From: Wenjunlia vitaminophila DSM 41686
Lineage (GTDB): Bacteria; Actinomycetota; Actinomycetes; Streptomycetales; Streptomycetaceae
Assembly: GCF_000380165.1 (NCBI RefSeq)
Contig: NZ_KB904678.1
Span: forward strand, 1 to 50,416
Reading direction: 5' to 3'
Length of the DNA: 50,416 bases
A program made the translations under genes and the position numbers. The stretch's first letter is position 1. Every line of letters starts with the position of its first letter. The notes under the pieces are model-generated. The model searched no databases. It had not been told where the DNA came from and saw only the letters and a program-made list of their open reading frames with translations. Of the stretch, positions 10,532-39,751 are shown piece after piece.

Positions 10532-13500
10532 TCACTCCTTGACGACGCCCAGGGCCTGGATGTCGATGCCGCCGAGCGCGGGGTGGACGTAGGCGTTGGT
10601 GAGGCGCTTCCCGCGGTAGTTGAGGGCGCGGCCGTGCAGCAGCGGCACGATCACCGACTCGTTCATGATCTTCTCGTCCACCTCCACCCACTTGTCCCTG
10701 GCCTCGCGGGGGTCCTCTTCCTGCGCCGCCTCGTCCATCGCGCTGTCGATGTCCCAGTCGTCGAGCTGGGCGTAGTTGTAGGCGCTGTCCTTGTCCACCA
10801 GCGGGCGCAGGAAGCCGGTGGGCGCGGGCCAGTCGGAGGACCAGCTCGTGAGGATGATGCCCCACTTCCGCTTCTCCACCTTCTCCGGGTCCTGGATGTC
10901 GGTGAAGAACTCCGCCCCGTCCACCAGCTCGATCTCGGCCTTGATCCCCACCACCTTCAGGTCGGCCTGGATGACCTGAAGGAGTTCCCGGTTGCGCGGC
11001 CCGCTGGCGGAGGCGACCAGCTTGGTGGTGAAGCCCTTGGTCTTGCCGCAGGCGTTGAGCTGTCCCCCGGCCTCGTTCGGCCGGGGACCGGTCAGCGTGC
11101 CGTACACGTCGGACTCGCGGTCGTAGCCGGTGATCGTCGGTGGGATCACCCCGCCGGCCACGTCCCCGCCGGTGTCGGGTCCGCCGTACAGCGTCTGCAG
11201 CCTGGTCTTGTCGATGGCGTACTGCACCGCGCGGCGGCACTGGAACGCGTCCAGCGGGGCCACGCTCGGCTGGACGCTGAGGTACCGCAGGGCACCGGTG
11301 TAGGAGGAGTCGGAGTACGCCTTCTTCTCGGCGTCAGCCAGGACCTGCCGCTCGGCGGCCTCACCGAGGCCGACCTGCGCCGGGTCCAGGTCCGCCGCTC
11401 CGGTGAGCAGGGCGTTGTCAACCGCGTCCTGGTTCCCCGGGTGGATGGTGAGTTCGATCCGGTCGGGCAGGGCGGTGCGGATGGGGTCGGTCCTCGCGTC
11501 CCACTCGTCGTTGCGGACCAGGGCCAACGACGAGGAGCCCGCACGGACCTCGGACTCCAGCTTGTAGGGGCCGCTGGCCACGGGCTTGCGGCCGTAGGTC
11601 TCGCTGTCGTCGGCCGCCCTGGGCACCGGGGACGCGGGGGACATCGCCAGGACGTAGGGGAAGTCGGGGAACGGGTCCTGGAGGTGGAACACGATGGTCC
11701 GGTCGTCGGGGGTCTCCACCGAGGACAGGCCCAGGCGGTCGGGGTCGTCGTCCTGGTACGGCCCCGGGTAGTCCTGGCCCTGGTCCAGCAGGTCCACCAG
11801 GTGTTCCGGGCCGTTGAACACGTCCGTGGCGAACGACCGCTCGATGCCGTACTTGATGTCCCTGGAGGTGATCGGGTCGCCGTTCTCGAACCGCACGCCT
11901 TCCTTCAGGGTGAACGTGTACGTCCTGCCCCCGTCGGAGACCTGCCCGGTGTCGGTGGCGAGGTCGGGCTTGAGCACCCGCCCCTTCGCGCCGGGCATCG
12001 GCGCGTAGTCCACCAGCTTGCGCATGAAGACGCGTTGGAGGTTCCACGACAGGGTGTCGTAGGTGTCCGCGGGGTCCAGTGTGTCCAGGGCCACGGACGA
12101 CGCCAGCCGGAGGGTGCCGCCGCGCTCGGTGGACGGCGAGACCACCCCTTCGAGCGCGCCGTTGTACCCGCTGGCCGAGGTGCGTTGCTCGGTGAGCTTG
12201 CCGATCAGTTCGGTGTCCACGGAGCCGTCGTCGCGGTCGAACGGGTCCAGCACCAGCAACCCGGCGACCAGGGCCCCCACCACCGTGACCGCCACGCCCG
12301 GGATCACCCACCGCAGCTTCCCGCGGGGGCGGGGCGCCGGCGGCGGCACCGGGTGGAACGACGGGGAAGGGGTGCCGTTCGCCACCCCCCAGGCCGCCTG
12401 GGGGGTGCCCGAGTAGGGGTTCACACCGGCCGGCGGGTACGGGAGTGACGGCGGGGGCCCGAACCCGGCGAGGGGCGGGGTGGCCTGCGGTACCGCGGCG
12501 ACCGCTGCCGGGCCGCCGCCCTTGAGGAACGTGAACCCGGTGCGCGGGTCGCCCTCCGCCGCCGGGGGGCCCGCGGCGCCCGACGACTCGGCCGCCGGGG
12601 GCGTCCCCCCGGCCTGCGGGTCGGTGGTCGACGGCCCGGACGCGACGGGGTCGGGAGCCGTGTCCGGGCCGGAGCCGGTTGACTCCCCCGACCCGGCCTT
12701 CCCGGTGGGATCGGCGGACTCGCCGCGGGGCCGGTCACCGTCCGTTGGCTCGACGGAGTCGGTGGGCCGTTCGCCGGCCGGCAGCACCCGCTCGGCGACC
12801 CCGCCGACCGTGATCCCGCCGACCGTGATCCCGAGGTCCGACGCCCCGCTCCCCGCGCGGTGCAGCCACCCGCGGAGCTCCGTCCGCAGGGCCGCCGCGT
12901 CCGGGGGGCGGTCCTGCGGGTCCTTGGTGAGCGCGCCGAGCACGATCTCGTCGAGGTCCCGCGGCACCTCGGGGTTGCGCTCCGAGGGCCTCGGCGGCGC
13001 CTGGTGGACGTGCCCGTACATGACGTTCAGCGGGGTGTCCCCGATGAACGGCACCGAACCGGTGAGGAGTTCGGTCAGCAGACAGCCCACCGCGTAGACG
13101 TCGCCCCTGGCGTCCACCGGCCTGCCCAACACCTGTTCCGGTGCCATGTAGCCGGGGGTGCCCACGGTGAACCCGGTGACGGTGAGCGTGGTGGCGTCCA
13201 CTACCCGGGCGATCCCGAAGTCGGCCACCTTCACCGCGCCGGACTTCGTGATCATCACGTTGGAGGGCTTGACGTCGCGGTGCACGGTGCCGTGGGCGTG
13301 GGCGTGGGCCAGCGCGTCGAGCACCTCGCAGGTGATCCGCACCGCGTACCCGGGGTCCAGCGGGGCCCGTTCCTTGACCACCCGCTCCAGGGTCACCCCG
13401 TCGATGTACTCCATGACCAGGTACGGCAGGATCTCCTCGCCGTCCCGGACCTCGTCCTGGTCGTGAACGGTGACGATCCCGGGGTGGTTCAGTACGGCGG

Positions 13501-13684
13501 CGGCCCTGGCCTCGCGGGCGAACCGCATGCGGGCCTCGGGGTCCCGGGCCAGGTTCCGGTGAAGGGTCTTGACCGCGACCGTACGTCCCAGTCGGGTGTC
13601 CCGCGCTCGGTGCACCCGGGCCATCCCTCCGGAGCCGAGTTGCTCCTGGAGTTCGTAGCGCCCTCCGAACAGCGCCCCTCCCAT
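10532..13684 (-). CDS. Receptor Ser/Thr protein kinase fused to an ABC-type solute-binding protein
   Basis: A 1050-residue fusion. Residues 9-275 are a PknB-type kinase: glycine loop GSGGMA (17-22), VAVK lysine at 39, HRDVKPSN with Asp137, DFG Asp155, then GTPGYMAPE. A Pro/Gly/Ser/Asp-rich linker leads to one transmembrane helix (about 457-477, after RGKLRW). Residues 485-1050 are an SBP_bac_5 peptide/nickel-binding-type domain (GGTLRLASSVALDTLDPADT; VRFENGDPITSRDIKYGIER; PVASGPYKLESE). By PknB topology the kinase is cytosolic and the binding domain extracellular, making it a likely ligand-gated kinase. ATG 13684 (MGGALFGGRYELQEQL) was preferred because upstream frame residues are not kinase-like; GTG 13690 is an alternative. 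Fusions of this type occur in other actinomycetes; I know of no established ligand. Confidence 0.92.
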   Translation of the reverse strand: MGGALFGGRYELQEQLGSGGMARVHRARDTRLGRTVAVKTLHRNLARDPEARMRFAREARAAAVLNHPGIVTVHDQDEVRDGEEILPYLVMEYIDGVTLERVVKERAPLDPGYAVRITCEVLDALAHAHAHGTVHRDVKPSNVMITKSGAVKVADFGIARVVDATTLTVTGFTVGTPGYMAPEQVLGRPVDARGDVYAVGCLLTELLTGSVPFIGDTPLNVMYGHVHQAPPRPSERNPEVPRDLDEIVLGALTKDPQDRPPDAAALRTELRGWLHRAGSGASDLGITVGGITVGGVAERVLPAGERPTDSVEPTDGDRPRGESADPTGKAGSGESTGSGPDTAPDPVASGPSTTDPQAGGTPPAAESSGAAGPPAAEGDPRTGFTFLKGGGPAAVAAVPQATPPLAGFGPPPSLPYPPAGVNPYSGTPQAAWGVANGTPSPSFHPVPPPAPRPRGKLRWVIPGVAVTVVGALVAGLLVLDPFDRDDGSVDTELIGKLTEQRTSASGYNGALEGVVSPSTERGGTLRLASSVALDTLDPADTYDTLSWNLQRVFMRKLVDYAPMPGAKGRVLKPDLATDTGQVSDGGRTYTFTLKEGVRFENGDPITSRDIKYGIERSFATDVFNGPEHLVDLLDQGQDYPGPYQDDDPDRLGLSSVETPDDRTIVFHLQDPFPDFPYVLAMSPASPVPRAADDSETYGRKPVASGPYKLESEVRAGSSSLALVRNDEWDARTDPIRTALPDRIELTIHPGNQDAVDNALLTGAADLDPAQVGLGEAAERQVLADAEKKAYSDSSYTGALRYLSVQPSVAPLDAFQCRRAVQYAIDKTRLQTLYGGPDTGGDVAGGVIPPTITGYDRESDVYGTLTGPRPNEAGGQLNACGKTKGFTTKLVASASGPRNRELLQVIQADLKVVGIKAEIELVDGAEFFTDIQDPEKVEKRKWGIILTSWSSDWPAPTGFLRPLVDKDSAYNYAQLDDWDIDSAMDEAAQEEDPREARDKWVEVDEKIMNESVIVPLLHGRALNYRGKRLTNAYVHPALGGIDIQALGVVKE

Positions 13685-13882
13685 GCCCACCGACACCAAC
13701 CTGCCCCCCGCGCCCCACGACGCCCGCCATCGTCCGGGCGCCCCGCCCAGTGCGGTCCTCGACACCCGGGAACAGGGTAGTCCGTTGGCCGGTCCCGGGT
13801 GCAGCGGTGTCGCACCGGCCAACGGGTGCACGCCCACCGGGGATTCGGGCGGACCCGCGCCCGCCCCGGCGCCGCTGTCGGT

Positions 13883-16100: not shown

Positions 16101-17369
16101 ATGACCATCACCCCCGTCGCCCCCACCATCTTCGAGACCCGCGAGTCCGCGGTGCGCAGCTACTGCCGGAGTTGGCCGACGGTCTTCGACCGGGCCCAGG
16201 GCAGCCGGATGTTCGACGAGGAGGGCCGTGCCTACCTGGACTTCTTCGCGGGGGCCGGGGCGCTGAACTACGGCCACAACAACCCGTTGCTCAAGCGCGC
16301 CCTGCTGGAGTACCTGGAGCGGGACGGCGTCACCCACAGCCTGGACATGGGCAGCGTGGCCAAGCGGACCTTCCTGGAGAAGTTCGAGGAGCTGGTCCTC
16401 CAGCCGCGCGGCCTGGACTACAGGGTCCAGTTCCCCGGCCCCACCGGAACCAACACCGTGGAGGCCGCGCTCAAGCTGGCCCGCAAGGTCAAGGGCCGGG
16501 AGTCGGTGATCAGCTTCACCAACGCCTTCCACGGGATGTCCCTCGGCGCCCTCGCCGTGACGGGCAACTCGATGAAGCGCGCGGGCGCCGGCATCCCCCT
16601 GGTGCACGGCACGCCGATGCCGTTCGACAACTACCTGGACGGCCTCACCCCGGACTTCCTGTGGTTCGAGAGGCTGCTGGAGGACAGCGGCTCGGGACTC
16701 AACCAACCAGCGGCGGTGATCGTCGAGACGGTCCAGGGTGAGGGCGGGGTGAACGTGGCCCGGCCAAGCTGGCTCCGCGGACTCGCCGAGCTGTGCGCGC
16801 GCCGCGACATGCTGCTGATCGTGGACGACGTTCAGATGGGCTGCGGGCGCACCGGGCCGTTCTTCAGCTTCGAGGAGGCCGGGATCGTCCCCGACATCGT
16901 CTGCCTGTCGAAGTCGATCGGCGGCTACGGGATGCCGATGGCGCTGACCCTGTTCCGCCCCGAACTCGACGTGTGGGAGCCGGGCGAGCACAACGGCACC
17001 TTCCGCGGCCACAACCCCGCGTTCGTCACCTCCGCCGCCGCGCTCGACGCCTACTGGTCCGACGACCACCTGGAGAAACAGACCCTGGTCAAGGGCGAGC
17101 AGGTGGCCGCCGCCCTGGTCGAGCTCTGCGCGGAGCACCGCGGGCTCGGGGCCTCGTTCCGGGGCCGGGGACTGATCTGGGGCCTGACCTTCGCCGACAC
17201 CCGGCGCGCGGTGGCGGTCTGCCGGCGCGCCTTCGAGCTGGGGCTGCTGGTGGAGACCTCGGGCCCGAAGAGCGAGGTGGTCAAGGTCATGCCCCCGCTG
17301 ACCGTCTCGCCCGACGAACTCGACGAGGGCCTCGCCGTGCTCGGGCGTGCCGTCCGGGACACCGCCTGA
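16101..17369 (+). CDS. ectB: Diaminobutyrate-2-oxoglutarate transaminase
   Basis: A 422-residue class III PLP aminotransferase that makes L-2,4-diaminobutyrate from aspartate semialdehyde with glutamate as donor. PLP features: [16 protein letters not shown] binds phosphate, [11 protein letters not shown] stacks on the ring, [13 protein letters not shown] carries the Asp, and [11 protein letters not shown] contains the Schiff-base Lys. The length and the start [16 protein letters not shown] are typical of EctB. AAAGGA precedes the ATG. It is the second gene of the ectoine operon, 83 bases after ectA. Confidence 0.96.
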
Positions 17370-17445
17370 TCGTTCCCTCCGGCACGCCGCACCGGCGGAC
17401 CCGCCGGACGCCGGCACCACAGGAACGAAACGAAAGGAAGAACGC

Positions 17446-17856
17446 GTGATCGTCCGATCCCTGTCCGACCTCGACGACACCGACCGGGACATCCGCTCCA
17501 AGAGCGGCACCTGGCGCAGCAGGCGCCTGGTCCTGGCCCAGGAGCGCGTGGGCTTCTCCCTGCACGAGACGGTGCTCTACGCGGGCACCACCACCGCGAT
17601 GTGGTACGCCAACCACGTCGAGGCGGTGCTGTGCGTGGAGGGCGAGGCCGAACTCACCAACGAGGAGACCGGCGAGAAGCACTGGATCAGCCCCGGCACC
17701 ATGTACCTGCTCGACGGCCACGAGCGGCACACGCTGCGCCCGAGGACCGACTTCCGCTGCGTCTGCGTGTTCAACCCACCGTTGACCGGACGGGAGGACC
17801 ACGACGAGAGGGGCGTCTACCCGCTGCTCACGGAGTCGGACAGGGCAGCGGACTGA
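17446..17856 (+). CDS. ectC: L-ectoine synthase
   Basis: A 136-residue cupin that cyclises N-gamma-acetyl-diaminobutyrate to ectoine. The family start [16 protein letters not shown], the segment [19 protein letters not shown] (metal-binding Glu region) and [13 protein letters not shown] (metal-binding His region) are all present, ending [27 protein letters not shown] before the GTG at 17446 fixes the start. It follows ectB by 76 bases and is 18 bases before ectD. Confidence 0.96.
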
Positions 17857-17874
17857 GACGGAGGGGGGACCACG

Positions 17875-18774
17875 ATGACCACAGCGACCGAGCAGGCGCC
17901 CGATCTGTACCCGACCCGTACCGCCACCCCGGTGGCGACGCCGCGCCGGGACCCGGTGGTCTGGTCACCGCCGGGCACCTCGGGGCCGATCTCCGCCAAC
18001 GACCTGGCCGGCTACGACCGTGACGGCTTCCTCACCGTGGACCAACTGCTCAGCGACGAGGAGGTGGCACGGTACCGGCGCGAGCTGGAGCGGCTGGTGG
18101 GCGACCCCGAGGTGCGCGCCGACGACCGGTCGGTGGTGGAACCGACGTCACGACAGATCCGGTCGATCTTCGAGGTGCACCGGCTCAGCGAGGTGTTCGC
18201 CGAGTTGGTCACCGATCCCCGGGTCCTCGGCCGGGCCCGACAGATCCTCGGCTCCGACGTGTACGTCCACCAGAGCCGGGTCAACATCAAGCCCGGCTTC
18301 GGGGCGAGCGGCTTCTACTGGCACTCGGACTTCGAGACCTGGCACGCGGAGGACGGTCTGCCGCGGATGCGCACGGTGAGCGTGTCCTTCGCCCTCACCG
18401 AGAACTTCACCACCAACGGCAGCCTGATGATCATGCCGGGTTCGCACCGCACCTTCGTGGGGTGCGCCGGGCAGACCCCCGCCGACCACTACCGGGACTC
18501 GTTGCGTCGCCAGGAGCTGGGCACCCCGGCCCCCGAGGACCTGCGGACGCTCACCGACCAGCACGGGATCAGGTTGCTGACCGGCAGGGCCGGCGCTGCG
18601 ACCGTCTTCGACTGCAACTGCATGCACGGCTCGGGGGACAACATCACCCCCCATCCACGCAGCAACGTCTTCCTCGTCTTCAACAGCGTGGAGAACGCAC
18701 CGGGGGAGCCGTTCGCGGCACCGGGCCGGCGTCCCGGGTTCGTCGCCGCCCGGGACTTCACCCCGGTCGGCTGA
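17875..18774 (+). CDS. ectD: Ectoine 5-hydroxylase
   Basis: A 299-residue Fe(II)/2-oxoglutarate dioxygenase that converts ectoine to 5-hydroxyectoine, a heat- and desiccation-protecting solute. The EctD signature FYWHSDFETWHAEDG contains the iron ligands His and Asp, and CMHGSGDNITPHPRSN contains the second iron His and the 2-oxoglutarate Arg. The start at ATG 17875 follows GGAGGGG. It is the last gene of ectABCD, and the strong hairpin after it ends the transcript. Confidence 0.96.
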   Translation: MTTATEQAPDLYPTRTATPVATPRRDPVVWSPPGTSGPISANDLAGYDRDGFLTVDQLLSDEEVARYRRELERLVGDPEVRADDRSVVEPTSRQIRSIFEVHRLSEVFAELVTDPRVLGRARQILGSDVYVHQSRVNIKPGFGASGFYWHSDFETWHAEDGLPRMRTVSVSFALTENFTTNGSLMIMPGSHRTFVGCAGQTPADHYRDSLRRQELGTPAPEDLRTLTDQHGIRLLTGRAGAATVFDCNCMHGSGDNITPHPRSNVFLVFNSVENAPGEPFAAPGRRPGFVAARDFTPVG

Positions 18775-32107: not shown

Positions 32108-32806
32108 ATGACCGACGCCGCATCCCGGACGCACGCAGCCCGGGCGGAGGAGATCCGCCTGGCGGTCTACTCCCACTTCGCACGAACCGGCGGCGCTCCG
32201 TCCGTCCCGGACCTGGCGTCCGGGACCGGACTCGCGCCCACCGAGGTACGCCGCGCGCTCCGCACCCTGCACCAGCGCCGCGACCTGGTCCTCGACAACG
32301 ACCACGACCGGATCGTCATGGCGCACCCCTTCTCCTCGGTCCCGCTCGGCTTCTCGGTGATGGGCGCGCGCACGCTGTGGTGGGGCGGCTGCGCCTGGGA
32401 CTCCTTCGCGATCCCCCACCTCCTCGACGACGAGCCGGAGGTCCTGGTCGCCACGCGCTGCCCGGCCTGCGGCACCCCACACGCATGGGTGGTGGACCGG
32501 AAGGCTCCGCCCCCCGGGGAGCAGGTGGCCCACTTCCTCACCCCCGCCCGCCACGTCTGGGACGACGTCGTGCACGCCTGCGCCCACCAGCGCCTGTTCT
32601 GCTCGGCCGACTGCGTCAGCACCTGGTCGGAGCACACCGGGCGGACGCCCGGCTACGTCATGGACCTGCCCACGCTGTGGCGGCTCGCCCGCGGCTGGTA
32701 CGCCGGCCGCCTGGACGCCGGACACGTCCGCCGCGACCCCGCCTCGGCCTCCGCGTACTTCGCCCAGGTGGGACTGCGCGGGGCGTTCTGGGGACTGCCC
32801 GACTGA
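32108..32806 (+). CDS. Alkylmercury lyase (MerB)-like protein
   Basis: A 232-residue protein with an N-terminal winged helix (about 12-70) and the MerB catalytic core. WWGGCAWDSF places Cys95 and Asp98, and RLFCSADC places Cys165, matching the Cys96/Asp99/Cys159 triad known for organomercurial lyase, which cleaves C-Hg bonds. Extra pairs CPAC (118-121) and the second Cys of CSADC look like an added metal knuckle. No merA, merR or merT is present, and the neighbouring regulator is AraC-type, so organomercury detoxification is uncertain. GGAGG precedes the ATG. Confidence 0.8.
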   Translation: MTDAASRTHAARAEEIRLAVYSHFARTGGAPSVPDLASGTGLAPTEVRRALRTLHQRRDLVLDNDHDRIVMAHPFSSVPLGFSVMGARTLWWGGCAWDSFAIPHLLDDEPEVLVATRCPACGTPHAWVVDRKAPPPGEQVAHFLTPARHVWDDVVHACAHQRLFCSADCVSTWSEHTGRTPGYVMDLPTLWRLARGWYAGRLDAGHVRRDPASASAYFAQVGLRGAFWGLPD

Positions 32807-34886: not shown

Positions 34887-35195
34887 ATGACGAAGAGTAC
34901 GACGGAACTACCGTCCTCGAACGAACGATCTGAGGAACCAGTGAGCGGCCAGGTGTCCGACACTGTCGAAGCCGTGGCTGAGCGGCCCCCCGTGGGCTCC
35001 CTCGTCGTGGACTCCAGGCGTGATCGGCTCGGTGTGGTGATGGGGCACGTCGGCCCGTGCTGCCAGCTCCGACCCGAACGGGGTGGACGGGAATGGGACG
35101 CCCGCCCGTCCGAGCTCCGTCCGGCCACCGATGCCGACAAGGTGCGGTTGAGGGTCCGCGAGGCCAACGAGCGCAGCACGGGGGCGAAGCTGTGA
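34887..35195 (+). CDS. Small conserved actinomycete protein next to the XRE regulator
   Basis: A 102-residue soluble protein. The first 35 residues are Ser/Glu-rich and variable. The rest, VGSLVVDSRRDRLGVVMGH...GGREWDARPSELRPAT, looks like a small beta-barrel segment that I recall beside XRE-type regulators in other actinomycetes. No function is known. Start ATG 34887 with only a weak AAAGAAG upstream. A GTG overlaps its stop, but the frame it opens runs into the VOC gene region and was not called. Confidence 0.65.
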   Translation: MTKSTTELPSSNERSEEPVSGQVSDTVEAVAERPPVGSLVVDSRRDRLGVVMGHVGPCCQLRPERGGREWDARPSELRPATDADKVRLRVREANERSTGAKL

Positions 35196-35767: not shown

Positions 35768-36100
35768 GCGCGCCAGTGTGACCGAGGGACCCATGGCTGA
35801 CCAAGCGTTTCTTCCGGGCGGCCCTGTGGTTCCGGCGCGGCGCGGCCAGTGCCTGTGGGCCGACTCCACACCGACGGACGGCACACACGTCCTGCCAAGT
35901 CCGGGGCCGGTACACACGTGCCTGATCACTGCGGCCATGGACTCGTTCGGGTGATCGGGCTGCAATCGCTTGTGATCACACGGATGTTGGGAGGCAGGGA
36001 TTCCCAGGGTCGTCACGGCGACAGGTCCGGCCAGTGCCACCGACGGACGGCACCACCAGACCGGTGAGGCCACACCAACCGGAACGAAGGAGAACACAGG
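35768..36100. other. Upstream region of the peptide/methyltransferase operon, with a 16-bp direct repeat
   Basis: This 333-base divergent region has no persuasive gene. CACCGACGGACGGCAC occurs twice, at 35869-35884 and 36038-36053, and each copy is preceded by GGCCAGTGCC at a different distance. The second copy lies 48 bases before the peptide ATG. They may be regulator-binding sites or a duplicated fragment. Confidence 0.45.
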
Positions 36101-36238
36101 ATGACATTCCCCATTGCCCCGTACGCCCAGCGAGGCGACGGAGACGACGACCACCCCGGCCAGCCGTGGCAGCCTCCGCAGGACCCGCCGAGCCCTGACG
36201 GTTCCAGCCCGGAGGGCGACGGGAAGCACCGCAAGTGA
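36101..36238 (+). CDS. Small Asp-Gly-rich peptide, candidate RiPP precursor
   Basis: A 45-residue peptide, too short for most gene callers, starting MTFPIAPYAQRGDG. AAGGAG lies 10 bases before the ATG, and its TGA overlaps the GTG of the methyltransferase by four bases. It is rich in Asp, Pro, Gly and Gln and has three Asp-Gly pairs (13-14, 33-34, 40-41), the dipeptide most prone to aspartimide formation, and ends GKHRK. A hydrophobic leader-like start followed by a polar core, coupled to a PIMT homologue, resembles precursors of aspartimide-containing RiPPs (imiditides, PIMT-modified graspetides). No ATP-grasp or lanthipeptide synthetase is seen. That it is a RiPP precursor is inference. Confidence 0.6.
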   Translation: MTFPIAPYAQRGDGDDDHPGQPWQPPQDPPSPDGSSPEGDGKHRK

Positions 36239-37413
36239 CGCCCGACGTCCTGCGTACGGACCGCCCCAGCCGCAACGAGCTGGGGCGGGTACTCATGGAG
36301 TCCGGTGCGCTGTCGTCGGACTGGGTTCCGACCTTCACATCCGTGGACCGGGCCGCGTTCCTCCCGGACGTGATGTGGCCCTATGACCTGGCGACCCGCA
36401 CGAGTTCCGCTGTGGACAAGCGGGAGGACCCGGACGCCTGGTACGAGGCGGCGGACAGCAACGTCCCCATCGTGACCCGGTGGGACGACGGAACCCAACC
36501 GGGGCCCGGTCCCGGCAGGTTGTCCACCAGTTCGTCCTCCATGCCCTCCGTGGTTTACGACCTGCTCCAGGACCTGGCGGTGGAGGTTGGCATGCGCGTA
36601 CTGGACGTGGGCACGGGCACCGGCGAGACGGCCGGTGCCCTGACCCACCGCCTTGGACCCGACAGTGTGACGACCATGGACATTGACGGATTCGTGTCCC
36701 GGATGGCCCAGGAGCGGCTGTCCCGGCACGGCTGGCACCCGGAGGTGGTCGTGGGCGACGGGTTCGAGGGGCATCCCGACACCGCACCGTACGACCGCAT
36801 CCTGGCCACGGTGGGTGTCCGCGAAGTCCCCGATACCTGGATCAGGCAGACCCGGCCCGGGGGGATCATCCTCGCCCCGTTCGGCACCCACTACGGAAAC
36901 GCCGACGCCGTGGTGCGCCTGAAGGTGGCGGACGGGACGGCAAGCGGGCACTTCACCCAGCGTGTGGAGTTCATGAAACTGCGTACGCGGAGGAACTCCG
37001 AGGTCACTCCCGACGACTACCTGTCCGCGTGGCCGCTGAAGGACGCCGAGGTGTCCAACACTTACCTGAGTGAAGGGGAGTTCCTTCGCGGGCAGTGGTC
37101 CGACCTGCCGTTCGTGCTGGGTCTGCGGGTGCCTCACTGTCGCCAGGCGGTGGCGGAGAAACGCGACGACGCACGGCCGGTGTGGTTCCACAGCCTGTCG
37201 GACCTGTCCTGGGCATGTGTGATGTTCCGCGATGGCGAGCGGGAGGCGAAGGTCTGGCAGGCGGGCTCGCGTCGCCTGTGGGACGAGGTGTCCAACGCCT
37301 ACCTCTGGTGGCGGGACCAGGGGTGCCCGGACGTGGCCCGGTTCGGGCTGACGGTCAGCCCACACGGGCATCGCGCGTGGCTGGACGACCCGGGGGATTC
37401 CTGGCCGATCTGA
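36235..37413 (+). CDS. Protein-L-isoaspartate O-methyltransferase homologue (RiPP-type)
   Basis: A 392-residue SAM methyltransferase. After a 95-residue N-terminal region, SSMPSVVYDLLQDL (about 101-114) stands where housekeeping PIMT has its substrate loop. RVLDVGTGTGETAGAL (about 121-136) is SAM motif I, DRILATVGVREVPDTWIRQTRPGG is the post-I/motif II part, and a C-terminal 150-residue extension ends RFGLTVSPHGHRAWLD. This extended form is the one found with ribosomal peptides (ATP-grasp and imiditide systems), where it methylates Asp and drives aspartimide formation. Translational coupling (GTGA) to the 45-residue peptide supports that role here. Confidence 0.85.
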   Translation: MTPDVLRTDRPSRNELGRVLMESGALSSDWVPTFTSVDRAAFLPDVMWPYDLATRTSSAVDKREDPDAWYEAADSNVPIVTRWDDGTQPGPGPGRLSTSSSSMPSVVYDLLQDLAVEVGMRVLDVGTGTGETAGALTHRLGPDSVTTMDIDGFVSRMAQERLSRHGWHPEVVVGDGFEGHPDTAPYDRILATVGVREVPDTWIRQTRPGGIILAPFGTHYGNADAVVRLKVADGTASGHFTQRVEFMKLRTRRNSEVTPDDYLSAWPLKDAEVSNTYLSEGEFLRGQWSDLPFVLGLRVPHCRQAVAEKRDDARPVWFHSLSDLSWACVMFRDGEREAKVWQAGSRRLWDEVSNAYLWWRDQGCPDVARFGLTVSPHGHRAWLDDPGDSWPI

Positions 37414-38062: not shown

Positions 38063-39751
38063 TCAACTGGTCCGGCGCAGGGTCACCCTGCCCGCCTTCT
38101 TGGTGTAGAGGGCCCCTCCGGCGCTCATCGAGACCAGCATGGTGTAGCGGCCGGCCGGCACCTCGGAGACATCCACTCCCTCGCCCTTCGGGCTGGTGTA
38201 GTACCCGAAGTCGTAGTTGCCGACGTCGTCAGGGCTCTTGCGTGCGCGCACCGGCTTGGCGTTCCTCCGCGCCACCAGGGGGAAGGAGTAGGTGCCCGCC
38301 TTCCCCTGGAGGACGAGGTAGTAGGAGGCGTGCGCGAACTTGTCGGCGTTCCGGCCCGGCAGGAAGAACACGCCCTCCGCGTGCGCGACCCGCTCGCGTA
38401 CCCACGAGTCCTCGACGGTGAAGCGGATGGTGTCCGAGTCCTCCCCCACGACGCTCCGCTTGATGACCCTGAGTCCGCCGCGGCCTCCCCTGACCATGAT
38501 CTCCGCGTCCTGGGACACGAAGCGGGTGTCCACGACGACCTGCGAGATCAACCGGGTCCTCCGCTCGATGCCCTCGCGTTCACTCGAGAGCCAGACGGAA
38601 ACGTCGTAGCTCCCGAGCGGGAGCGCGTCGAAGGAGATGCTGTCGCTTCCGGAGCTGAACCCGCCTTCGGCGTACTCACAGAAGTACTTCTCGTAGTAGT
38701 CCCGGTACAGCCGCAGGACCTTGACCGTCTCCAGGGGGAAGACCCAGGTCCTGCCGTTCTGCTCCAGCACGAGTCGCTTCCGCTCCTCCACCTCGCCCTC
38801 GGGGGGGACCCCGGGGAGGAAGGCGTGGCCGCTCAGGTGGACCTTGCGGTCATTCACGGTGATCTTCTTGAGGATGGCCAGGGCGGTGTCCCGACGCCGC
38901 AGCTCGGCCAGGTACTCGGCCGCCTTGGCCGGGTCGTCGGGGCCAGGTCCGACGCGGTGCTGACCCCAGTGCAGGACGACGCCCTCGGTCAGGGCGTGGA
39001 TGATGCTCCAGAGCACCGGCAGGGCGTGCCTGGTCACTTCCTCGTGCCGGCGCAGGGTGGGGGACTCGACGAGGACGAGGTTGAAGTTCTCGTACTTCCG
39101 CAGCGCCGGCAGGTAGTGCTTGACCTCCTGCTCGTACTGGTAGTCCGCCTCGCAGGAAACGAGGTAGATGTTCCGGTCGAAGTCCTTCTCCGCCTGTAGG
39201 ACGTCGGGTATGACGGAGTCCATGATCTTCACGTTCTCCATCGGCTCACCCTCGCCGAGGACGTACCTTCCGAGGTCGCCGTGTCCGTGGGAGTAACTGC
39301 CCAGGAAATACTGCGGCGTGGACATCACGATGTTCTTGTAGTCGTACTTGAGCCCGTAGTAGAGGGCGGCGCTTCCCCCCTTCGAAGAACCGGCCAGCGT
39401 CACCTGGTCCCGGGTCACGCCGAGCCGCTCCATGAAGCTCCTGATCAGCGCCTCGACGGACTCGGAAACGCTGAAGTCCATGTTGCGCGCCACATAGTAG
39501 GAGGCGGCTCCGTCGAAGTAGTCACGAATACGCAGGACGTTGCACTGTATCCCGTCCAGTGCGTTCCCGAACCCCCACCTGCTCCCCACCGATGAGAACA
39601 CCACGAGAAGGTTCTTGTGGTCCCCCTTGGCCGCACGGAACTGGTAGTGCACGGGCCATTTTCCATGCACCTCCACGTCCTCCGCATAGCCACGGGAAAG
39701 GGCCATCTGCGCCGCGTAGTTCGGGGATAGTTCGGGGGTGACGCCTACCAT
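38063..39751 (-). CDS. Asp2/XcbB-like alpha/beta hydrolase with C-terminal beta domains
   Basis: A 562-residue protein. The N-terminal 260 residues form a hydrolase core: LLVVFSSVGSRWGFGNAL, then VTLAGSSKGGSAALYYGLKYDY with the nucleophile Ser123 (GSSKGG), IYLVSCEADYQYEQ for the acid region and SPTLRRHEEVTRHALP for the His. This resembles the accessory Sec protein Asp2 and XcbB/CpsF capsule proteins, which act on surface glycans. The remaining 300 residues contain two or three beta-sandwich repeats (YDVSVWLSS; YYLVLQGKAGTYSFPLV; YTMLVSMSAGG). No signal peptide, glycosyltransferase or Sec2 gene is nearby. It is bracketed by the 31-bp repeat, suggesting a mobile cassette. Confidence 0.72.
   Translation of the reverse strand: MVGVTPELSPNYAAQMALSRGYAEDVEVHGKWPVHYQFRAAKGDHKNLLVVFSSVGSRWGFGNALDGIQCNVLRIRDYFDGAASYYVARNMDFSVSESVEALIRSFMERLGVTRDQVTLAGSSKGGSAALYYGLKYDYKNIVMSTPQYFLGSYSHGHGDLGRYVLGEGEPMENVKIMDSVIPDVLQAEKDFDRNIYLVSCEADYQYEQEVKHYLPALRKYENFNLVLVESPTLRRHEEVTRHALPVLWSIIHALTEGVVLHWGQHRVGPGPDDPAKAAEYLAELRRRDTALAILKKITVNDRKVHLSGHAFLPGVPPEGEVEERKRLVLEQNGRTWVFPLETVKVLRLYRDYYEKYFCEYAEGGFSSGSDSISFDALPLGSYDVSVWLSSEREGIERRTRLISQVVVDTRFVSQDAEIMVRGGRGGLRVIKRSVVGEDSDTIRFTVEDSWVRERVAHAEGVFFLPGRNADKFAHASYYLVLQGKAGTYSFPLVARRNAKPVRARKSPDDVGNYDFGYYTSPKGEGVDVSEVPAGRYTMLVSMSAGGALYTKKAGRVTLRRTS

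What the first reader, a model, noticed from the sequence alone, without database searches (positions are those of the whole stretch)
36101..37413. Candidate two-gene aspartimide RiPP locus
A 45-residue peptide with three Asp-Gly pairs and a good Shine-Dalgarno site overlaps by GTGA a PIMT homologue with the extended form associated with RiPPs. Such methyltransferases convert Asp to aspartimide in graspetides and in imiditides, where precursor plus methyltransferase suffice. No ATP-grasp or lanthipeptide synthetase is in the window, so this would be the standalone type. The peptide is not one I recognise.
Basis: partly seen in the sequence, partly recalled or inferred. Interest (0 to 1): 0.72.

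Follow-up and report, generated by a model that had tools for sequence, protein, structure and literature searches.

The report
Two-gene aspartimide peptide locus (pamtide)
A tiny Streptomyces-family gene for a 45-residue peptide and the enzyme gene overlapping it form a type I pamtide (imiditide) pair, a peptide class already described in which one aspartate is turned into a reactive ring; new here is that a good share of its relatives sit beside one kind of gene regulator, and in one genome the peptide's tail is fused to it.

Summary
Window 36101-36238 encodes a 45-aa Gly/Pro/Asp-rich peptide with an AAGGAG ribosome site, overlapping by GTGA a 392-aa PIMT-type methyltransferase (36235-37413). 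Leaving out three distant paralogues of the same genome, 61 of the 65 loci whose methyltransferase start is covered (window included) carry the peptide. Its last 27 codons are under strong purifying selection (pN/pS 0.20). One Asp, D33 in P-S-P-D33-G, is kept in 56 of 58 sequences; the C-terminal GDG is not. The enzyme falls in the clade of peptide-linked methyltransferases, outside the three graspetide ones of the same genome. No graspetide-type ATP-grasp ligase is on the contig. This matches published type I pamtides/imiditides: a new member of a known kind. The chemistry was not tested.

Beyond the published text I saw: relatives are linked to an upstream XRE-DUF5753 regulator plus DUF6879 cassette (DUF6879 within 2.5 kb upstream in 13 of 34 loci; 0.07 expected), and in one genome the peptide core is the C-terminal tail of such a regulator, still overlapping its methyltransferase. 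The window locus itself lacks that cassette. A regulatory role is possible but rests on gene order and one fusion.

The parts
36087..36092 (+). Shine-Dalgarno-like AAGGAG, 8 nt before the ATG
   Evidence: sequence; similar purine-rich sites stand before many homologous precursors, but my script chose starts partly by such sites, so this is not an independent count
36101..36238 (+). precursor peptide, 45 aa (type I pamtide / imiditide precursor)
   Evidence: present in 61 of 65 eligible loci; pN/pS 0.20 over the last 27 codons
36155..36235 (+). conserved core block PGQPWQPPQDPPSPDGSSPEGDGKHRK (residues 19-45)
36197..36199 (+). Asp33 codon (P-S-P-D-G), predicted site of methylation and aspartimide formation
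   Evidence: P-x-P-D-(G/S/T) in 56 of 58 sequences, against 45 of 58 with the C-terminal G(D/N)G-x-(H/R)(R/K) motif; chemistry inferred from PMC10787088 and PMC13001092
36235..36238 (+). GTGA stop/start overlap (translational coupling inferred)
   Evidence: the same 4-nt overlap in 27 of 61 loci with a precursor
36235..37413 (+). PIMT-type methyltransferase (PAMT), 392 aa
   Evidence: PF01135, TIGR04188 below cut-off, model pLDDT 85.3 / pTM 0.86, best fold match 1DL5, tree
36598..36624 (+). SAM-binding motif VLDVGTGTG
   Evidence: alignment A2
37309..37329 (+). WXXXGXP motif (WRDQGCP) in the C-terminal domain
   Evidence: strict motif in 25 of 30 aligned homologues; motif described in PMC13001092
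33523..34695 (-). nearest regulator: XRE helix-turn-helix protein (HTH_3), 390 aa, no DUF5753 match; link to the pair not shown
34887..35195 (+). small conserved Streptomycetaceae protein with dispersed paralogues; link to the pair not shown
   Evidence: no Pfam/NCBIfam match; 7 copies in the own genome

Best explanation
A standalone type I pamtide (imiditide) locus. The two genes are probably translated together. The methyltransferase binds the linear peptide, probably through the conserved basic C-terminal tail (KHRK) and its own extra C-terminal domain, and uses SAM to methylate the side chain of Asp33 in PPSPDG. The backbone nitrogen of Gly34 then displaces methanol to give an aspartimide, which partly hydrolyses to isoaspartate or aspartate. 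Shown here: gene anatomy, conservation, purifying selection, near-invariance of Asp33, enzyme clade and (by prediction) fold, absence of a graspetide-type ligase on the contig. Inferred from characterised relatives: the chemistry, the recognition mode and the modified residue. The biological role is not known; across the family, gene order points to a partner or output of an XRE-type regulator, though no such DUF5753 regulator was found at the window's own locus.
For: Peptide next to the methyltransferase in 61 of 65 eligible loci found by methyltransferase similarity alone. Against L041, L043 and L044 the window's last 27 codons have 4-6 synonymous and 0 non-synonymous differences. P-x-P-D kept in 56 of 58 sequences although whole subgroups lose the C-terminal GDG. 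Enzyme in a clade of peptide-associated methyltransferases, the three ligase-associated ones of the genome outside. Fold: best match 1DL5 (TM 0.53 by query, 0.64 by target). No TIGR04187 ligase on contig C44; three elsewhere in the genome. [quoted passage not shown] SpaM gave +14 and -18 Da species with SpaA, and replacing the conserved C-terminal residues by Ala was deleterious (PMC10787088 section 2.5), 'abolished modification' in the review's words (PMC13001092). L050 from S. sparsogenes has the same core and a methyltransferase 64.5% identical.
Against: No chemistry was or could be tested. The methyltransferase is below the TIGR04188 cut-off. In G001, the only other held genome of the same genus, the precursor has lost PSPDG (L009), and L046 has PSPNG, so Asp33 is not strictly required across the family. 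L030, L058 and L069 have no recognisable precursor. No dedicated leader protease or RiPP exporter was recognised; the window does hold ABC transporter genes and an M20 peptidase, none beside the pair.
Confidence: 0.9

Rival explanations
1. The pair is a regulatory module: the modified Asp tail is a partner, or a switch, of a WhiJ-like XRE-DUF5753 transcription factor, not a secreted natural product. This adds a function to the best explanation and does not contradict its chemistry.
For: DUF6879 upstream within 2.5 kb in 13 of 34 methyltransferase loci, 0.07 expected, against 1 of 22 graspetide ligase loci in the same genomes; XRE-DUF5753 ending less than 1 kb upstream in 16 of 52 loci (the fusion counted) and DUF6879 in 14 of 52; in L089 (genome G090) a complete HTH_31 plus DUF5753 protein ends in ANAPWTPPEPSPDGQSPEGDGQHRK and overlaps an intact methyltransferase. 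Fusions of WhiJ to its small partner BldB are known (PMC10294661, passages).
Against: Only one fusion found (profile A1 searched in 394 genomes; the 70 brought no new handle). The window locus has neither DUF5753 nor DUF6879 beside it. 36 of 52 loci lack the XRE neighbour by this search. DUF6879 also lies near 2 of 22 graspetide ligases (within 5 kb), and DUF5753 regulators are reported beside graspetide genes (PMC13097080; PMC8939145), so it may simply be a local regulator of RiPP genes.
Confidence: 0.25
2. The stable end product is isoaspartate, the aspartimide being only an intermediate.
For: SpaA coexpressed with SpaM was mostly at unchanged mass, with -18 and +14 Da also seen (PMC10787088); that Asp-Gly aspartimides hydrolyse readily is general knowledge.
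Against: The N. maritima imiditide is about half aspartimide after 40 h of expression (PMC13001092); it has His, not Gly, after the Asp. The Asp-to-isoAsp change was not directly confirmed for SpaA.
Confidence: 0.45
3. A graspetide whose ATP-grasp ligase acts from elsewhere in the genome.
For: TIGR04188 is the graspetide-associated methyltransferase model; three TIGR04187 ligases in the genome.
Against: Each of the three ligases sits beside its own methyltransferase (loci L003, L005, L007); the window enzyme lies in another clade; by eye, the precursor alignment keeps no Lys/Ser/Thr and Glu/Asp ring pattern.
Confidence: 0.03
4. A housekeeping isoAsp repair enzyme with an unrelated or chance small ORF upstream.
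For: PCMT domain.
Against: Peptide conservation and selection, extra C-terminal domain, eight matches of the family in one genome.
Confidence: 0.01

Closest known systems
Type I pamtides, SpaA/SpaM of Streptomyces sparsogenes (PMC10787088)
   Same: Two genes, ~45-aa Gly/Pro/Asp-rich precursor, PAMT with C-terminal extension, conserved Asp, basic C-terminus. A S. sparsogenes locus (L050) has the same core motif and a 64.5% identical methyltransferase.
   Different: L050 reads DGETPPGDGTHRK where the window has DGSSPEGDGKHRK. Which of two S. sparsogenes loci in this clade (L050, L081) is SpaA/SpaM could not be checked, because the sequence is only in a figure; L050 fits better (basic C-terminus). 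Product not measured here.
Imiditides, NmaA/NmaM of Nonomuraea maritima (review PMC13001092; primary paper not held)
   Same: Precursor plus PIMT homologue only; linear substrate; WXXXGXP motif in the enzyme.
   Different: NmaA has His after the modified Asp, the window peptide Gly; sequences not compared here.
Graspimiditides (graspetides with a PIMT; models TIGR04188 / TIGR04187)
   Same: Homologous methyltransferase.
   Different: No TIGR04187 ligase on the contig; the ligase-associated methyltransferases form other branches.
WhiJ/BldB (XRE-DUF397) regulatory cassettes of Streptomyces (PMC10294661, passages; PMC10364602, search listing only)
   Same: 16 of 52 relatives of this locus have an XRE-DUF5753 gene directly upstream; one of them is fused to it.
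   Different: The window locus has no DUF5753 or DUF397 gene identified beside it.

Membership tests
Type I pamtide / imiditide | precursor of ~45 aa rich in Gly, Pro and Asp next to a PAMT | tested here: met
   45 aa with 6 Gly, 10 Pro, 7 Asp, GTGA overlap with the PAMT
Type I pamtide / imiditide | highly conserved Asp near conserved Pro/Gly | tested here: met
   P-x-P-D-(G/S/T) in 56 of 58 sequences
Type I pamtide / imiditide | PIMT homologue with extra C-terminal domain of over 100 aa, WXXXGXP | tested here: met
   AlphaFold model and 1DL5 match; WRDQGCP
Type I pamtide / imiditide | no primary modification enzyme of another RiPP class nearby | tested here: met
   no TIGR04187 ligase on contig C44; no lanthipeptide, lasso or LAP enzyme domain among the 37 window ORFs put to Pfam; other and smaller ORFs not scanned
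Type I pamtide / imiditide | methyl ester, aspartimide and/or isoAsp formed on the precursor | not testable with these tools
   needs coexpression and mass spectrometry
Type II pamtide / cysimiditide | two CXXCXGXG motifs in the precursor | tested here: not met
   no Cys in the peptide
Graspetide (graspimiditide) | ATP-grasp ligase in the cluster | tested here: not met
   no TIGR04187 match on the contig; none seen in the Pfam scans
TIGR04188 methyltransferase subfamily | score over the curated cut-off of 380 bits | tested here: not met
   277 bits

The most novel reading that the evidence does not exclude
Type I pamtides in Streptomycetaceae are not only natural-product precursors: the PPSPDG tail and its methyltransferase form a protein-level switch for XRE-DUF5753 (WhiJ-like) regulators, acting as a separate small partner in many genomes and as a covalent tail of the regulator in at least one (G090). 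An Asp-to-aspartimide or isoAsp change would then be a bacterial post-translational modification of a transcription factor or its complex.
Probability: 0.18. Interest if true: 0.75.

Novelty: new member of a known kind. Interest (0 to 1): 0.38.

Why it matters
The role of pamtides and imiditides is an open question; [quoted passage not shown] This locus is one more member, but the linkage of its relatives to XRE-DUF5753/DUF6879 genes and the natural regulator-tail fusion give a concrete, testable lead on that role, and the conservation analysis names the residue to mutate (Asp33).

Tried and rejected
Chance ORF: rejected by conservation and codon pattern. Graspetide in trans and repair PIMT: rejected by clade and by ligase positions. 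All three DG pairs modified: not supported; the C-terminal GDG is lost in subgroups and the N-terminal part varies. RNA structure in the 5' region: none beyond shuffles (z -0.05). Sigma-70 promoter or terminator patterns: none found. Link of the small protein 34887-35195 to the pair: relatives of it neighbour some homologous loci, but its family is dispersed, and in the 22 other genomes taken none of its 35 matches lies within 20 kb of a methyltransferase locus; not followed. More fusions: 20 further stretches, chosen for long frames, partial or weak matches or variant precursors, were fetched and compared with the G090 regulator; only tail similarity was found, so fusions to other proteins are not ruled out. 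One search was meant to widen the fusion search but its 70 genomes bore handles already given, so it added none. Regulator paralogues of G090 (7), G120 (7) and G096 (1) have ordinary C-termini, so the tail is special to L089 among those. Limits: the upstream-cassette statistic treats loci as independent; shared ancestry makes the true significance weaker than the Poisson value. The 22 genomes were my choice among those with a methyltransferase match and 1-3 contigs; the 34 loci were not all checked for a precursor; some of the 142 DUF6879 rows are pieces of one gene. shares loci, and its XRE and DUF6879 counts come from BLAST with three seed sequences, so they are lower bounds. Searches scored only 7 and 18 candidates per genome, so their tallies are lower bounds too.

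Full report
What is there. The window (contig C44 of a 6.43 Mb Streptomycetaceae genome; the family is read from the named relatives) carries at 36101-36238 a 45-codon ORF preceded by AAGGAG, whose TGA overlaps the GTG of a 392-codon methyltransferase ORF. The enzyme matches PCMT (PF01135) and, below its curated cut-off, TIGR04188.

Is it real. Homologues of the methyltransferase were gathered without regard to the peptide: 8 matches in the own genome, the window's included, 1 match in the only other held genome of the genus, 91 of 249 family genomes at E<=1e-75 (loci were given for the best ones), 42 loci in GTDB contigs. Of the 79 loci so obtained, 11 lacked the start of the methyltransferase match and were dropped. 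Of the remaining 68, 61 carry the precursor motif; the seven without are three distant paralogues of the own genome (L003, L005, L006), L025 (the fusion below), L030, L058 and L069. There are 57 distinct peptides; some loci repeat the same peptide (L010 and L052, L012 and L053, L016 and L060, L027 and L067). A profile of 21 precursors found matches at E<=0.01 in 111 of 394 family genomes, the weakest of which may be chance. The last 27 codons of 11 close loci have pS 0.39, pN 0.08; differences by codon position are 136, 90 and 439. The exact 4-nt overlap recurs in 27 of 61 loci.

Which Asp. P-x-P-D-(G/S/T) is present in 56 of 58 sequences (57 peptides plus the fusion tail); the exceptions are L009 (lost) and L046 (Asn). 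The C-terminal G(D/N)G-x-(H/R)(R/K) is present in 45 of 58, and two subgroups end in PNPPK or GPR/GPK instead. I therefore predict Asp33.

The enzyme. Alignment A2 of 30 sequences gave a model with pLDDT 85.3 and pTM 0.86; its C-terminal part has helix 290-298, strands 302-306, 313-320, 326-332 and 338-343, helix 348-361 and strands 370-375 and 378-383. Foldseek's first hits are the two chains of T. maritima PIMT 1DL5 (TM about 0.53 by query, 0.64 by target), which PMC10787088 names as, to its authors' knowledge, the only enzyme of the PAMT clade with a solved structure. By sequence 1DL5 is also the best solved relative. In a tree of 47 rows the window enzyme groups with L038 and L039 inside the precursor-associated clade; the three own-genome methyltransferases that lie beside ATP-grasp ligases fall outside (ligase positions). 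Several of the outside rows have long branches.

Surroundings. The 37 window ORFs put to Pfam include ectoine synthesis, ABC transporters, a kinase, a permease, an M20 peptidase and regulators, with no other RiPP enzyme and nothing recognised as a dedicated leader protease or RiPP exporter. The nearest regulator is an XRE protein without DUF5753 on the other strand.

What is known. PMC10787088 (abstract, sections 2.2-2.5 and passages) describes over 1,500 pamtide gene clusters; type I precursors have ~45 aa, and with SpaM one gave +14 and -18 Da species. PMC13001092 (abstract, the imiditide and enzyme sections, and passages) treats imiditides and type I pamtides as one class with charge-based recognition. 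L050, from S. sparsogenes, shares the core motif and 64.5% of the methyltransferase; a second locus of that genome, L081, belongs to the PNPPK subgroup. That ATCC 25498 and the DSM 40356 of the paper are the same strain is recalled, not checked.

What may be new. Clustering of flanking ORFs showed an upstream cassette: DUF6879 (PF21806), XRE with HTH_31 and DUF5753, a small unnamed protein, and sometimes DUF397. In 22 genomes of 1-3 contigs, chosen among those with a methyltransferase match, with 142 DUF6879 rows, 13 of 34 methyltransferase loci have DUF6879 within 2.5 kb upstream (12 on the same strand, 1.08-1.89 kb; one opposite); 0.07 expected if placed at random. Not all 34 were checked for a precursor. 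In the same genomes 1 of 22 graspetide ligases has one so placed and 2 of 22 have one within 5 kb, against 14 of 34 (Fisher p 0.004 and 0.009). Among 52 loci with at least 2.5 kb upstream, 16 have XRE-DUF5753 ending less than 1 kb upstream on the same strand (the fusion counted) and 14 have DUF6879; 36 and 38 have not. In L089 (G090) a 301-aa ORF has HTH_31 and DUF5753 (1.3e-49) and then ANAPWTPPEPSPDGQSPEGDGQHRK, overlapping by GTGA an intact 400-aa methyltransferase. Fifteen regulator paralogues in G090, G120 and G096 end differently. This is one case, and a recent chance joining of a much-copied regulator gene to the peptide cannot be excluded.

Prior print for the link. Graspetide groups 11 and 13 may co-occur with DUF397 and DUF5753 (PMC13097080, passages) and DUF5753 regulators are listed near actinobacterial ATP-grasp loci (PMC8939145, passages). 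Searches for DUF6879 (0 papers), imiditide (5 papers, 4 listed), pamtide (2 papers), DUF5753 with methyltransferase and precursor peptide (2 papers, both on graspetides) and isoaspartyl methyltransferase with WhiJ (0 papers) gave no report of the link for pamtides in what I saw; the primary imiditide paper is not held and may mention it.

Verdict.

Noticed in passing
L089 4619-5524 and 5521-6723 (G090:C1): XRE-DUF5753 regulator whose C-terminus is the pamtide core, overlapping an intact methyltransferase by GTGA.
   Followed up: partly
L046, precursor ending at the methyltransferase start (5001): The conserved Asp is Asn (PSPNG); Asn-Gly could form the same succinimide without the enzyme.
   Followed up: no
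L009 (G001, same genus as the window): Precursor keeps GDGTHRK and the overlap but has lost the PSPDG Asp; the methyltransferase frame is open.
   Followed up: no
L049 4724-4846: A second precursor-like ORF (MLLPTLSTTPGEPWPVPPDPPSPDGGPSMTG...) in tandem upstream of the usual one.
   Followed up: no
L002 (G000:C32) and L006 (G000:C55): Two further precursor-like peptides beside methyltransferase paralogues in the same genome (one ends PPSPDSGPPPGNGGHRR; the other has NADG and GEHRR).
   Followed up: partly
G090 and G120 genomes: 17 and 15 matches (E<=1e-50) to the fused XRE-DUF5753 regulator, many of them 68-78% identical to it, a marked expansion; some copies are followed directly by a small protein with RTWRITATNG...GYLPPWA.
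   Followed up: partly
G190:C1 about 7197-7200 kb; G160:C1 about 2659-2664 kb: DUF6879 genes also lie upstream of two graspetide ATP-grasp ligases (1.25 and 2.8 kb).
   Followed up: no
window 10532-13837 (-): A 1101-aa protein joining a Ser/Thr protein kinase domain to an extracellular solute-binding protein domain (SBP_bac_5).
   Followed up: no
window 16101-18774 (+): Class III aminotransferase, ectoine synthase and a PhyH dioxygenase: ectoine/hydroxyectoine genes.
   Followed up: no
window 32108-32806 (+): MerB (alkylmercury lyase) domain protein with an HTH-like N-terminus, below the NCBIfam MerB cut-offs.
   Followed up: no
window 38063-39751 (-): Protein weakly similar to XcbB/CpsF capsule and Asp2 accessory secretion proteins.
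   Followed up: no
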